Positions 24,105 to 61,185 of a DNA stretch of 64,000 bases are shown here, piece by piece (position 1 is the stretch's first letter; each line of letters begins with the position of its first letter). Where the stretch lies: the NCBI GenBank assembly GCA_019637755.1, contig JAHBVC010000001.1:1268480-1332479 (forward strand). The letters run 5' to 3'. A program made the position numbers and the translations under genes. A model generated the notes under the pieces. It worked only from the letters and a program-made list of their open reading frames with translations. It made no database searches and was not told the origin of the DNA. The stretch comes from Anaerolineales bacterium. GTDB taxonomy: Bacteria > Chloroflexota > Anaerolineae > Anaerolineales > UBA11579.

Positions 24105-24125
24105 CGCGGGGTTCATTAACATGCA

Positions 24126-24239
24126 ACTGGGTGGTTGTTTGTCGTACGACAAACACAACTGCGAAGCCGGTGAGACTCCGGCGCTGTCGCGCAACTGTGA
24201 TCCGTCAGCTTAGACGGTAAGCCAGGTCGCCGGCCCAGC
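24126..24239 (+). promoter_or_regulatory. Cobalamin (B12) riboswitch aptamer
   Basis: The conserved core is readable: GAAGCCGGTGAGACTCCGG (24163-24181), then GCTGTCGCGCAACTGTGA (24183-24200) and the B12-box-like AGCCAGGTCGCC (24220-24231). Closing stem P1 is CTGGG at 24127-24131 with CCCAG at 24234-24238. An internal arm is formed by the perfect 18-bp palindrome at 24137-24154. It precedes btuF, so binding of a cobalamin should repress B12 uptake genes. The terminator at 24310 indicates transcriptional control. Confidence 0.92.
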
Positions 24240-24309
24240 TTGCGCAAGCACAATCCTCGACGATGGGAGGTGCCGTACCGCTCAAGCCCACTTGCTTGAC
24301 AGTTGCCCC

Positions 24310-43200: not shown

Positions 43201-43878
43201 TTATTCGTGCATCGTGTAACTTGCGAAAGTTTCCACTTCTTCAGGCAGGAAGACAACCTCTTCTTTGCCCATCAACTTCTCACTCATTTTAAGTTTGACC
43301 AGTTCCACCAGGCCATCATGGGTAACGAAGTTCATGTTGTCCGTGGGCACAGTCAGCACCGGGCATAAGGTGAAGTTGGTCACCCAATCTTCGTACAAGC
43401 CATTCAGTTGCTCCAGATACTCAGTGCTGATCTTGGCTTCAAAATCACGGCCACGTTGGGCAATGCGGCGCTGCAATGTGGGCACTGAAGCCCGCAGGTA
43501 GATCACCAGGTCAGGCGGGCGCAGCAGATCGCACAGCAAGCGGTACAGATCGCGGTACGAGGCGTAATCGCGCTCATCCATCTGGCCTGAGAGGTACAAG
43601 TTCTTGGCGAAGATCTCGGCGTCTTCGTAGACCGAACGGTCCTGGATCACGGAGTTGGGATCGGCCAGCAGGCCAAGGTGCATGCTGAGGCGGTGACGCA
43701 AAAAGAATACTTGGGATTGGAAGGCCCAGCTACGCATATCGGTATAGAAATCTTCAAGATACGGATTCTCTGCTACCGGTTCGTAGTACGGGTTCCATTG
43801 CAAATGTGTGGCGAGCTTCCCCACCAAGGTCGATTTTCCGACGCCAATGTTTCCAGCCACCGCCACAAAATGCTTCAT
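43201..43878 (-). CDS. Deoxynucleoside kinase (dGK/dAK family)
   Basis: 225 residues. The P-loop GNIGVGKST is at 9-17, base-selective EPVAENPYLEDFY at 33-45, DRSVYEDAEIF with the DRS motif at 80-82, and the lid RRIAQRGRDFE. This is the pattern of bacterial deoxyadenosine/deoxyguanosine kinases. It salvages purine deoxynucleosides to monophosphates. Its ATG overlaps the stop of the ATP-grasp protein gene by 4 nt, so the two are co-translated; the reason for this pairing is unclear. Confidence 0.93.
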   Translation of the reverse strand: MKHFVAVAGNIGVGKSTLVGKLATHLQWNPYYEPVAENPYLEDFYTDMRSWAFQSQVFFLRHRLSMHLGLLADPNSVIQDRSVYEDAEIFAKNLYLSGQMDERDYASYRDLYRLLCDLLRPPDLVIYLRASVPTLQRRIAQRGRDFEAKISTEYLEQLNGLYEDWVTNFTLCPVLTVPTDNMNFVTHDGLVELVKLKMSEKLMGKEEVVFLPEEVETFASYTMHE

Positions 43879-56245: not shown

Positions 56246-56926
56246 TTAAATCTCCAGCGTATCGCCGGGCTGCATCAGGAAGGCCTGTGCATCCGTCTCG
56301 GCGTTGACGCGGGCCACCCAGGCGGGCTCGTCTTGCTTGATCACTTCCCAGGTGGAGGAGTGGTACGGTATGACGCGCCTGGGGCGCAAGAGCTTGACCG
56401 CTTTGAGCGCATCGTCTGGCCCCATGGTGAAGTTATCGCCGATGGGCAGGGCGGCGAAATCCACGCCTTCGTCGCCAATCAGCGCCATATCGCCAAACAG
56501 GCCCGTATCGCAGGCCAGGTACACCTTCTTGCCCTCCGGGGTGCTGAGCAGGAAGCCGCTGGCCGTGCCACCGGGGAAGCCATCCGGAAAGCCGGAGCCG
56601 TGGGCGGCATGGGTGAGCTTCAGGTAGCCAAACGGATGATGATAGCCGCCGCCAATGTGCTGGCCGTGCGTTTTGTAGCCCTTGGCGGCATAGTAGCGCG
56701 CAATCTCATCATTGGCAATGATCATCGCCCCGGTGCGCTGCACGATCGGCTCCACATCCCCGGAGTGGTCCCAGTGGCCGTGGCTTACTAACACGTAATC
56801 GGCGGGCACGTCCTCCATTGCGATGCTAGCCTGGGCGTTTTGGCGAAAGAAGGGATCGACAACAATATGCAGACCATTGATCTCAAAGCCACAGGTGGCG
56901 TGGCCATACCAGGTAAATGTGGTCAT
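56246..56926 (-). CDS. UPF0173 metal-dependent hydrolase (metallo-beta-lactamase fold)
   Basis: 226 residues. The MBL metal motif is SHGHWDHSGD (H49, H51, D53, H54), with FTWYGHATCGFEINGLHIVVDPFF at the start, CDTGLFGDMALIG in the middle and VIPYHSSTWEVI at the end. This is the UlaG-like UPF0173 group, whose biochemical role is mostly unknown. A strong AAGGAG precedes the ATG. It is the last gene before the DnaA-box region. Confidence 0.93.
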   Translation of the reverse strand: MTTFTWYGHATCGFEINGLHIVVDPFFRQNAQASIAMEDVPADYVLVSHGHWDHSGDVEPIVQRTGAMIIANDEIARYYAAKGYKTHGQHIGGGYHHPFGYLKLTHAAHGSGFPDGFPGGTASGFLLSTPEGKKVYLACDTGLFGDMALIGDEGVDFAALPIGDNFTMGPDDALKAVKLLRPRRVIPYHSSTWEVIKQDEPAWVARVNAETDAQAFLMQPGDTLEI

Positions 56927-56979
56927 ACTGCTCCTTGGAGTTAAGCGGGGTCTCTTGCTATAAACCCAAAACCCTCCCT

Positions 56980-57330
56980 TAGTTATTCATGGATTTTTAC
57001 TTACGTATTAATAATAGAGGCGGTGGATATGTGGATAAGAGCGCCGTTGTCAACAAGTGCCCATAGATGCGCTGCAGATAGGCTGGGAAGGCCCTGTATG
57101 TGCCTAAAAATCAGCGAATAAATATCCTCTACGTACGTGGGGATAGATTCTGGGTAAATAGCGCTGAGTGGGGATGCTGTGATTCCTGGCCGGGTTGTGC
57201 ATACTTATCCCCAGCGCCTTGCGCAAACCGTGCGGATAGATTCAGGCGAAGCTAGCCGGGCAACGCACAAGATACTATCCACAAACCCCCAGAGTTATCC
57301 ACAGAAATAGGCGGAGTTGTCCACAAAAGT
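56980..57330. other. Candidate replication origin (oriC): DnaA-box cluster next to an AT-rich stretch
   Basis: In 56927-57395, which has no gene other than the tRNA edge, an AT-rich block (about 56980-57020) is followed by DnaA boxes. Perfect TTATCCACA is at 57030-57038 (minus) and 57295-57303 (plus). Single-mismatch boxes are TTATCCCCA at 57205-57213, CTATCCACA at 57275-57283 and TTGTCCACA at 57317-57325. The last three plus-strand boxes are spaced 20-22 bp, two helical turns. GGATAG-type relatives lie at 57141 and 57234. Genes mostly point left on the left side and right on the right side, as expected at an origin. dnaA itself is not in the window. Confidence 0.72.
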
Positions 57331-57358
57331 GGCAGCTACACGTACGCAGGATGCCGGT

Positions 57359-57384
57359 AAAAGAATACGCCCGTGAGGGCGCAT
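57359..57384 (-). terminator. Terminator of tRNA-Leu
   Basis: Minus-strand ATGCGCCC, loop TCAC, GGGCGTAT (one G-U pair), followed by TCTTTT. It lies 12 nt after the tRNA 3' end. Confidence 0.75.
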
Positions 57385-57395
57385 GCTTTTATGAG

Positions 57396-57477
57396 TGCCG
57401 AAGGTGGGAATCGAACCCACACTCCCAAGGGAACGCGATTTTGAGTCGCGCGCGTCTGCCAGTTCCGCCACTTCGGC
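57396..57477 (-). tRNA. tRNA-Leu (anticodon CAA)
   Basis: An 82-nt class II tRNA. The acceptor GCCGAAG pairs with CTTCGGC and the discriminator is A. The anticodon arm CGCGA-CTCAAAA-TCGCG gives CAA, reading UUG. A variable arm (TTCCCTTGGGAGT) precedes the T arm GTGGG-TTCGATT-CCCAC. CCA is not encoded. Confidence 0.95.
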
Positions 57478-58667: not shown

Positions 58668-59774
58668 CTAACTATCGACTGACAATTTATATTCATCATC
58701 GTCTAGTTCAGCTAGCCTTGATGCCATTGGTGCAATTCTATTCTCTAACAGAGACCGCTCAGGAGTTTCAGGCTCTAAGAAATTCTTAGGAACCTGCTGC
58801 GCCCCAACAGTTGAAATTAGAGTTTGTCGAAGGCTGTTGGCAAGCTCCTGATTCTCGTGCTGGTTTAGCTTTTCAGAAACCGATAGCGCCTTCTCTATCA
58901 ACTCTACCTTTGCCTGTTTAGCGGCAGTCTCCACGAGTTCTGTTTCAGCAATTCTCTTCCTTCGCGTTAGGAGCAAATATCCAAAATTATCAATTAGGAG
59001 CTTGATGGTTTCTGCTACACCAAGATCGACCTTTATAGGAGCTTCGCCAGGAGAATGAAACTCGATCGATTCTAGGTAGGGCTTGGCAAGAATTACCTCC
59101 TGCCCCGTTCTTTTGGCTACCGTATAAATTAGATTTTCTACTGCGATGATTAACTGATTAGTTCGATTTAGAACATCGGTAAATTTCTGCCAATCTAGTT
59201 GACCTTCGCCTGTTCTAACTACAGCAACTCTACCAAGAGGCCTCGGCTTGGTAATTGCGACAACTTCTGCGTTTTTGTATTTATGGATGTAATTGTCAGC
59301 TCGCACCCCAAAACGAGTCAGAGGCCCTTGTTGTTTGCTCCAGGCAAGGTGACCTGGTACATCAGCATGATTTTTGAGCCGAACAAATAGAGGGGTCAGC
59401 GGTTTCCTGTCAAAGACAGAGCTACTTACTATTCCAAAGCCTATGCTGGACACGTCCGTTGTCGCAGCTCTATGCCAAATAACGGTATCAAACGAATACT
59501 CTAAAGTTTCCCCGCCTTCCTCTCGGTGAAACCGTCTTCGCTCTGCGGTTAATCTATCGCCGCCCAAAGAAAGATATACGTCAAGATGATTAATAGGCAC
59601 ATAGTACCTAAAACCATGAATGTAAAGTCTGCGGTAATGGTCAAAGGTTCTTAGTGCAATCTCCCTTCGGCCCGATTTTGCAAGAAAGTTGTTAATTTCG
59701 CGGAAAGAGATATGTCCACCTTTTCTAAGGTAGAGCAAGTAACCTTCTAAAGCATCTTCCGTTTTAGCAGCCAA
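58668..59774 (-). CDS. Uncharacterised protein in a low-GC insert
   Basis: 368 residues starting with TTG 59772-59774, five bases after GGGGAGG; TATAAT lies at 59797-59802. GC content is about 40-45% by eye, far below its neighbours, and codon use shifts to A/T endings, pointing to recent transfer. The N-terminal 80 residues (GYLLYLRKGGHISFREINNFLAKSGRREIALRTFDHYRRLYIHGF) look helical, possibly a wHTH-like module. The middle is beta-rich, residues 225-260 are hydrophobic-helical, and residues 280-330 form a charged coiled coil. No catalytic motif is recognised. It stands divergently next to a DNA methyltransferase. Confidence 0.8.
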   Translation of the reverse strand: MAAKTEDALEGYLLYLRKGGHISFREINNFLAKSGRREIALRTFDHYRRLYIHGFRYYVPINHLDVYLSLGGDRLTAERRRFHREEGGETLEYSFDTVIWHRAATTDVSSIGFGIVSSSVFDRKPLTPLFVRLKNHADVPGHLAWSKQQGPLTRFGVRADNYIHKYKNAEVVAITKPRPLGRVAVVRTGEGQLDWQKFTDVLNRTNQLIIAVENLIYTVAKRTGQEVILAKPYLESIEFHSPGEAPIKVDLGVAETIKLLIDNFGYLLLTRRKRIAETELVETAAKQAKVELIEKALSVSEKLNQHENQELANSLRQTLISTVGAQQVPKNFLEPETPERSLLENRIAPMASRLAELDDDEYKLSVDS

Positions 59775-60087: not shown

Positions 60088-61185
60088 ATGCCTCGCGATG
60101 CAACGTTGCCCCTCAACACCATCCTCCACGGCGATTGTCTGGATGAGCTTGCTAAGCTCCCCGCCAACTCAGTAGACCTCGTCTTCGCTGACCCGCCCTA
60201 CAACCTGCAGCTCGGCGGTGAGCTGCGCCGCCCCAACAACAGCAAGGTGCGCGGTGTGCAGGAGGCCTGGGACCGCTTCGATGACTTCGCCGCCTACGAT
60301 GAGTTCACGCGTGCCTGGCTGGCCGCCTGCCGCCGCGTGCTGAAGCCAACCGGCACCCTGTGGGTCATCGGCAGCTATCACAACATCCACCGCGTCGGCA
60401 ACGTACTGCAAGACCTGGGCTACTGGCTGCTCAACTCCATCGTGTGGGTCAAAGCCAACCCCACGCCCAACTTCCGCGGCACGCGCTTCACCAACGCCCA
60501 CGAGACGCTGCTGTGGGCGCAGAAGGAGCACGGCGCGCCCTACACCTTCAACTATCACGCCATGAAATCGCTCAACGAGGAGAAGCAGATGCGCAGCGAT
60601 TGGCTGCTGCCCATCGCCTCCGGCGGTGAGCGCCTGCGTGCCGATGGAGAGTCGGCCCACCCGACCCAGAAGCCAGAATCGCTGCTCTATCGCGTGCTGC
60701 TCTCCAGCTCGAATCCAGGTGACGTCGTGCTCGACCCCTTTTTCGGCTCCGGCACCACCGGCGCCGTGGCCAAGCGCCTGCACCGTAACTGGATCGGTAT
60801 TGAGCGCGATGCCAACTACGTCCGCATCGCCCGCCGCCGCATCGGCCAGATTGAGCCGGTGGCCTACGAGAATGAGCTATTCGAATCCTACGAGCCGCGC
60901 CGTGAACCGCGTGTGCCCTTTGGCAACCTGCTCGAGGCTGGCCTGCTGGAAGCTGGCCAGCGCCTCTACCTGGGCGAGAAGGGCCGCGAGAGCGCCCGCA
61001 TCCTCGCCGACGGCTCACTCAAGTTCAACGGCCGCCGCGGCTCCATCCACCAGCTCGCCAAAGACGCGCTGGATGGCCCGGCCAACGGCTGGCAGCACTG
61101 GTACTACAATGACCCGCATAGCGGCCAGCGCCGCCCGATCGACGACCTGCGCCAGCGCCTGCGTCAGGCGACAAAAGTGAAGTAA
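60088..61185 (+). CDS. CcrM-like DNA adenine-N6 methyltransferase (predicted GANTC specificity)
   Basis: 365 residues. It is a beta-class methyltransferase: catalytic ADPPYNLQLGGELRRPNNSK (DPPY at 35-38) precedes the SAM-binding LDPFFGSGTTGAVAKRLHR (216-234). VIGSYHNIHRVGNVLQDLGYWLLN, TRFTNAHETLLWA and SAHPTQKPESLLYRVLLSS match Caulobacter CcrM almost block for block. So does the C-terminal domain (RVPFGNLLEAGLLEAGQRLY ... GSIHQLAKD ... NGWQHWYYND) that CcrM uses for GANTC recognition. No restriction enzyme is recognisable nearby, so it may be an orphan. The ATG at 60088 is chosen; a GGAG lies 12 nt upstream. Confidence 0.92.
   Translation: MPRDATLPLNTILHGDCLDELAKLPANSVDLVFADPPYNLQLGGELRRPNNSKVRGVQEAWDRFDDFAAYDEFTRAWLAACRRVLKPTGTLWVIGSYHNIHRVGNVLQDLGYWLLNSIVWVKANPTPNFRGTRFTNAHETLLWAQKEHGAPYTFNYHAMKSLNEEKQMRSDWLLPIASGGERLRADGESAHPTQKPESLLYRVLLSSSNPGDVVLDPFFGSGTTGAVAKRLHRNWIGIERDANYVRIARRRIGQIEPVAYENELFESYEPRREPRVPFGNLLEAGLLEAGQRLYLGEKGRESARILADGSLKFNGRRGSIHQLAKDALDGPANGWQHWYYNDPHSGQRRPIDDLRQRLRQATKVK

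What the first reader, a model, noticed from the sequence alone, without database searches (positions are those of the whole stretch)
56980..57330. Probable chromosomal origin without dnaA next to it
Two perfect DnaA boxes and several single-mismatch ones flank an AT-rich block in the largest gene-free gap of the window. Plus-strand boxes at 57275, 57295 and 57317 are two helical turns apart. Transcription direction mostly diverges from here. dnaN is 10 kb away and dnaA is not visible, so the usual dnaA-dnaN arrangement is broken.
Basis: partly seen in the sequence, partly recalled or inferred. Interest (0 to 1): 0.7.

Follow-up and report, generated by a model that had tools for sequence, protein, structure and literature searches.

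The report
Chromosomal replication origin far from dnaA
This gap between two genes is almost certainly where the bacterium (an Anaerolineales member of the Chloroflexota) starts copying its chromosome; the origin has the standard, widely conserved design, but the gene for the starter protein DnaA lies 114,000 bases away instead of beside it.

Summary
The 468-bp gap 56927-57394 (between a metallo-hydrolase gene and tRNA-Leu/ychF) holds five DnaA boxes with at most one mismatch in 300 bp; shuffled windows never exceed two per 400 bp. No other cluster of this kind was found in the genome, and there are no boxes at dnaA, 114 kb away. The layout is conserved across the class Anaerolineae: one or two boxes pointing into an AT-rich stretch, a short spacer and DnaA-trio repeats (the known basal unwinding system), then, usually 200-265 bp away, three same-strand boxes 20 and 21-22 bp apart. 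Two perfect parS sites lie 10.5 kb away, at the same distance in relatives. Third-codon-position skew sampled from a closed relative chromosome (CP075367.1) places the origin at 300-360 kb in 57 of 60 bootstraps; the homologous site is at 321.5 kb, dnaA at 454 kb. Corrections: the unwinding block is at the left edge, outside the boxes, and raw GC skew shows no local switch. dnaA flanks the origin in some related families, so the two have become separated in this lineage, as is known in other bacteria. Verdict: a real oriC of a known kind.

The parts
56927..57394 (.). oriC intergenic region (468 bp) between the metallo-hydrolase gene and tRNA-Leu
   Evidence: ORFs, tRNA, box cluster, same gap in relatives
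56960..57017 (.). AT-rich DNA-unwinding element
   Evidence: 68% AT, highest in the gap; 40-60% of columns invariant in 4 genomes versus 5-35% in the middle of the gap
57006..57017 (+). DnaA-trios, + strand TAT-TAA-TAA-TAG (3'-GAT AAT AAT TAT-5'); counterpart of the conserved CTACTACGATTACTA on the box strand in relatives
   Evidence: sequence; class-wide comparison; published rule of >=3 NAN trios within 16 bp of a box (PMC8287927)
57018..57029 (-). 12-nt spacer with GC-rich part between box and trios
   Evidence: sequence; published peak 10-13 bp
57022..57030 (-). weak second DnaA box ATATCCACC (2 mismatches), in tandem with the next
   Evidence: sequence; the tandem second box is present in relatives
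57030..57038 (-). perfect DnaA box TTATCCACA (unwinding-module box)
   Evidence: conserved as C/TTATCCACA in relatives
57205..57213 (+). DnaA box TTATCCCCA (1 mismatch), position not conserved exactly
57275..57283 (+). DnaA box CTATCCACA, first of the triad
57295..57303 (+). perfect DnaA box TTATCCACA, second of the triad
57317..57325 (+). DnaA box TTGTCCACA, third of the triad
57395..57477 (-). tRNA-Leu(CAA), right border of the origin gap
56246..56926 (-). metallo-beta-lactamase-fold hydrolase gene, left border
   Evidence: Pfam PF12706/PF13483
57592..58650 (+). ychF, first protein gene to the right
   Evidence: PF06071; TIGR00092
46270..47427 (-). dnaN, about 9.6 kb left of the origin

Best explanation
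This is the chromosomal origin oriC. DnaA, encoded 114 kb away, acts in trans. It binds the three same-strand boxes at 57275-57325 and the minus-strand tandem at 57022-57038. From the latter it is passed onto the adjacent DnaA-trios (57006-57017), forms a filament on that strand and melts the AT-rich stretch 56960-57017, where helicase and replisome load and forks leave in both directions. Shown by sequence: boxes, layout, conservation, parS proximity, skew position in a relative. Inferred: DnaA binding, melting at that side, bidirectional firing. The separation from dnaA reflects movement of dnaA or of the origin after the class arose; the origin kept dnaN within 10 kb.
For: Box cluster far above chance and the only one of its kind found in the genome; no boxes at dnaA here or in CP075367.1. 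Phylogenetic footprint: boxes and AT block conserved in four genomes while the middle of the gap drifts to 5-35% identity. The same minus box + spacer + trio module and + triad occurs across families of the class, with a spacer of 12 nt and >=3 trios, meeting the published BUS rules. Two perfect parS sites 10.5 kb to the right, at the same distance in three relatives; perfect parS also lies 3-7 kb from the homologous origin in three more distant genomes. Sampled third-position skew in closed CP075367.1 puts the origin at 300-360 kb in 57/60 bootstraps; the homologous site is at 321.5 kb, dnaA at 454 kb (flip test p=0.007 for GC3). In G300 and G262 the same type of cluster directly flanks dnaA. 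DnaA is full length with the GGRDHTTVMHG box-binding signature.
Against: Raw GC skew shows no sign change at the site. The best skew fit is 30-45 kb to the right of the site. Gene-strand bias is local only. No dif was found with an E. coli-type core. No binding, melting or marker-frequency data. The genome is a two-contig assembly of unknown order.
Confidence: 0.94

Rival explanations
1. The cluster is not the origin but a DnaA titration or reactivation locus (datA/DARS/DBC-like), and the true origin is elsewhere.
For: DnaA-box clusters outside oriC exist in E. coli and B. subtilis, and this genome has another conserved box pair 110 kb to the left.
Against: An unwinding module with trios and an AT-rich block is present; parS and skew point here; no better cluster was found in the genome.
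Confidence: 0.03
2. Boxes regulate transcription of the divergent flanking genes (hydrolase, ychF); replication starts at dnaA.
For: DnaA is also a transcription factor, and the flanking protein genes diverge.
Against: No boxes at dnaA. The cluster stays with the hydrolase while other genes lie between it and ychF in relatives (L008, L016). In G262 and G300 the homologous layout sits by dnaA with other neighbours. Skew excludes dnaA in 59 of 60 bootstraps.
Confidence: 0.02
3. The true start is the box pair at C1:1215260, or an undetected origin in sequence missing from the assembly.
For: Two perfect boxes 21 bp apart, conserved in five genomes; the genome is 96.8% complete.
Against: That pair lies in a roughly 30-bp gap between two genes, with no AT-rich element or trios seen; it has only two boxes.
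Confidence: 0.01

Closest known systems
DnaA-dependent oriC with basal unwinding system (B. subtilis BUS; Pelliciari et al. 2021, PMC8287927)
   Same: DnaA-box tandem, short GC-rich spacer, DnaA-trios with 3'-GAT-5' nearest the box, adjacent AT-rich DNA
   Different: Window copy of the trios is degenerate after the first three; not next to dnaA
Synechococcus elongatus PCC 7942 oriC (PMC7198777)
   Different: Different phylum; there oriC was located experimentally; here dnaN is 9.6 kb from the origin
E. coli-type oriC between gidA and mioC (as described in PMC10225481)
   Same: Origin detached from dnaA; R1-type box facing the unwinding element (orientation from general knowledge)
   Different: Different neighbours; no Dam/SeqA evidence was looked for here; triad of same-strand boxes 20-22 bp apart
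Origins beside dnaA in other Anaerolineae families (G262, G300, G020)
   Same: Boxes in the same class, including the + triad 20 and 21-22 bp apart in G262
   Different: dnaA directly adjacent there; here 114 kb away

Membership tests
Bacterial chromosomal oriC (DnaA-dependent) | Cluster of DnaA boxes above chance, in an intergenic region | tested here: met
   5 in 400 bp against a maximum of 2 in 200 shuffles; only such site found genome-wide
Bacterial chromosomal oriC (DnaA-dependent) | AT-rich unwinding element next to boxes | tested here: met
   68% AT at 56970-57030 in 40-bp windows, against 39% in the window as a whole; conserved
Bacterial chromosomal oriC (DnaA-dependent) | Lies at the replication-strand composition switch | tested here: met
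   In the closed relative CP075367.1, within sampling error of 20-45 kb; raw local skew alone shows nothing
Bacterial chromosomal oriC (DnaA-dependent) | Adjacent to dnaA (common but not defining) | tested here: not met
   dnaA 114 kb away; E. coli and cyanobacterial origins also lack this
Bacterial chromosomal oriC (DnaA-dependent) | parS centromere sites in the neighbourhood (common but not defining) | tested here: met
   two perfect sites 10.5 and 11.5 kb to the right, same distance in relatives
Bacterial chromosomal oriC (DnaA-dependent) | Replication actually initiates here; autonomous replication of the fragment | not testable with these tools
   needs read depth or a minichromosome assay
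Basal unwinding system (BUS) | DnaA box (<=2 mismatches), spacer 0-16 bp, at least three NAN trios | tested here: met
   box 57030-57038, spacer 12, trios GAT/AAT/AAT/TAT read 3'-5'; conserved in the class
Basal unwinding system (BUS) | DnaA separates the strands at the trios | not testable with these tools
   needs purified DnaA and a strand-separation assay
CcrM/GANTC-controlled origin | GANTC enriched in the origin and tied to presence of CcrM | tested here: inconclusive
   3 GATTC in the window origin, but 0-1 in four close relatives; origins of genomes without CcrM (G132, G088) have 2 and 0

The most novel reading that the evidence does not exclude
The origin region of this Anaerolineales lineage could belong to a replication-timing circuit not described for the phylum: a DnaA gene separated from oriC by about 114 kb on one side, a conserved two-box DnaA site 105-111 kb on the other side acting as a titration or timing locus, and an orphan CcrM-family GANTC methylase gene 2.8 kb from oriC, in 19 of 20 genomes sampled in the order, adding methylation control. 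Only the positions and their conservation are shown; the control function is speculation.
Probability: 0.12. Interest if true: 0.65.

Novelty: new member of a known kind. Interest (0 to 1): 0.4.

Why it matters
It gives a firm, testable origin for a group of uncultured Chloroflexota from which I found no origin described in the papers searched. It shows that searching beside dnaA would miss it: the class keeps one origin layout while dnaA is adjacent in some families and 0.1-1.5 Mb away in others. That fixes the origin for coverage-based growth-rate estimates from metagenomes and offers a natural series of dnaA-oriC separations to study.

Tried and rejected
Origin beside dnaA: rejected, no box within 4 kb of dnaA. 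Raw GC skew along the window and in genome samples: uninformative, noisy, no sign switch at the site; replaced by third-position skew on a closed relative. Global leading-strand gene bias: absent. dif site with an E. coli-type core, up to 3 mismatches: no hit in five genomes, so the terminus was not fixed independently. GANTC enrichment of the origin linked to CcrM: not supported across relatives. Strong single-strand fold of the origin: none, z 0.93. Literature on Anaerolineae origins: nothing found; DoriC itself could not be queried.

Full report
Setting. The window is G000:C1:1268480-1332479 of a 2.26-Mb, two-contig assembly. Close relatives found through ychF are Anaerolineales MAGs: L008 (95% identical YchF), the closed chromosome CP075367.1 (L009 = G002), L010 and L011.

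Observation. The gap 56927-57394 lies between a metallo-beta-lactamase-fold gene (minus strand) and tRNA-Leu(CAA), followed by ychF (plus strand). It holds perfect boxes at 57030 (-) and 57295 (+) and one-mismatch boxes at 57205, 57275 and 57317 (+). Five such boxes in 400 bp compare with a maximum of two in 200 shuffles. Genome-wide exact search for TTRTCCACA finds 27 sites, three of them here and no other triple. dnaN is 9.6 kb to the left; dnaA is 114 kb to the right. A 12-kb stretch around dnaA has one weak site 5 kb off, and the same stretch in CP075367.1 has none.

Footprint. Aligning the gap among four genomes leaves two conserved islands in an otherwise drifting sequence: the left AT-rich block with the minus-strand box, and the three plus-strand boxes. 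Searching 298 genomes of the class for paired boxes gave hits in 140, with one reversed-pattern match in each of two genomes. Reading the surroundings of 15 of these hits, with eight loci from near relatives, shows a shared layout in most: one or two minus-strand boxes, a short spacer often ending in GCCC, then CTACTACGATTACTA-like repeats, and usually 200-265 bp away a plus-strand triad 20 and 21-22 bp apart. Exceptions are L121 (no trio motif beside its minus-strand box), L119, L128 and L017 (no minus-strand box in range) and L127 (shorter spacing). The repeats match DnaA-trios (3'-GAT-5' on the opposite strand), and the module meets the published rules for the basal unwinding system: box, spacer up to 16 bp (peak 10-13), at least three NAN trios (PMC8287927). 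In the window the trios are GAT-AAT-AAT-TAT (read 3'-5') at 57006-57017, 12 nt from the box. The melting side is therefore the left edge, not the space between the boxes.

Independent position evidence. Two perfect parS sites lie at C1:1336175 and 1337141, 10.5 and 11.5 kb to the right; relatives have sites at the same distance. Perfect parS also occurs 3-7 kb from the homologous origin in L117, L120 and L135. Raw GC skew is noisy and does not switch at the site. Modelling third-codon-position G/C and A/T in genes of about 30% of CP075367.1, the best origin is 350-370 kb and the best terminus about 1.5 Mb; 57 of 60 block bootstraps give 300-360 kb. The homologous site is at 321.5 kb and dnaA at 454 kb. 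A strand-flip test on the smaller sample gives p = 0.007 for GC3 with the origin at this site.

dnaA separation. In G300 (same order) and in G262 and G020 (same class) the box cluster lies directly beside dnaA. In closed genomes of another family in the same order, dnaA is about 1.5 Mb (G038) and 0.7 Mb (G224) from the cluster. In the window's own group the distances are 114-133 kb. Which element moved is not resolved. DnaA here is full length (TIGR00362) with the usual GGRDHTTVMHG box-reading signature.

Mechanism. DnaA supplied in trans loads on the triad and the tandem, extends along the trios and melts the AT-rich block, followed by helicase loading. Box positions, layout and conservation are shown; binding, melting and firing are inferred from B. 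subtilis and related work.

Side findings. A second pair of perfect boxes at C1:1215260, in the short gap before a DUF92 gene, is conserved in all five close genomes about 105-111 kb left of the origin. A CcrM-family methylase gene lies 2.8 kb from the origin, at the same place in two relatives checked, and the family is present in 19 of 20 sampled genomes of the order, though not always near the origin. GANTC is under-represented in the genome (observed/expected 0.70-0.81; control palindromes 0.92-1.12), but a special link to the origin is not supported. CcrM homologues in some Chloroflexi were already noted in 2014 (PMC3973325).

Verdict. A genuine oriC of known type; the detached dnaA is a variation already known in E. 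coli and cyanobacteria. Its value is a firm origin for a little-studied class and a warning against searching only beside dnaA.

Noticed in passing
60088-61185 (+): CcrM-family adenine methylase (6pbd, E 1e-135; RAMA domain), probably GANTC-specific, next to the origin and in 19 of 20 sampled Anaerolineales genomes; no partner restriction gene was identified beside it. GANTC is under-represented in the genome.
   Followed up: partly
L185:5260-5289 (G000:C1:1215260-1215289): Two perfect DnaA boxes 21 bp apart in a roughly 30-bp gap before a DUF92 gene, conserved in five genomes about 105-111 kb left of oriC while the spacer between them drifts; possible DnaA titration or regulatory site.
   Followed up: partly
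58668-59774 (-): 368-aa ORF with no Pfam or NCBIfam match in a low-GC patch (about 52%), found between ychF and the CcrM-type gene here but absent at that place in CP075367.1; looks like an insertion.
   Followed up: partly
G000:C1:1224565 (outside window): A parS-like site with one mismatch (AGTTTCACGTGTAACA), also present in three relatives, about 95-101 kb left of oriC in this genome and CP075367.1.
   Followed up: no
24115-24250 (+): Cobalamin riboswitch (RF00174, 48 bits).
   Followed up: no
43201-43878 (-) and L067:8013-8648: Two deoxynucleoside-kinase genes within 15 kb on either side of the origin; the right-hand one is also near the box cluster in other families (L117, L118, L125-L127).
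   Followed up: no
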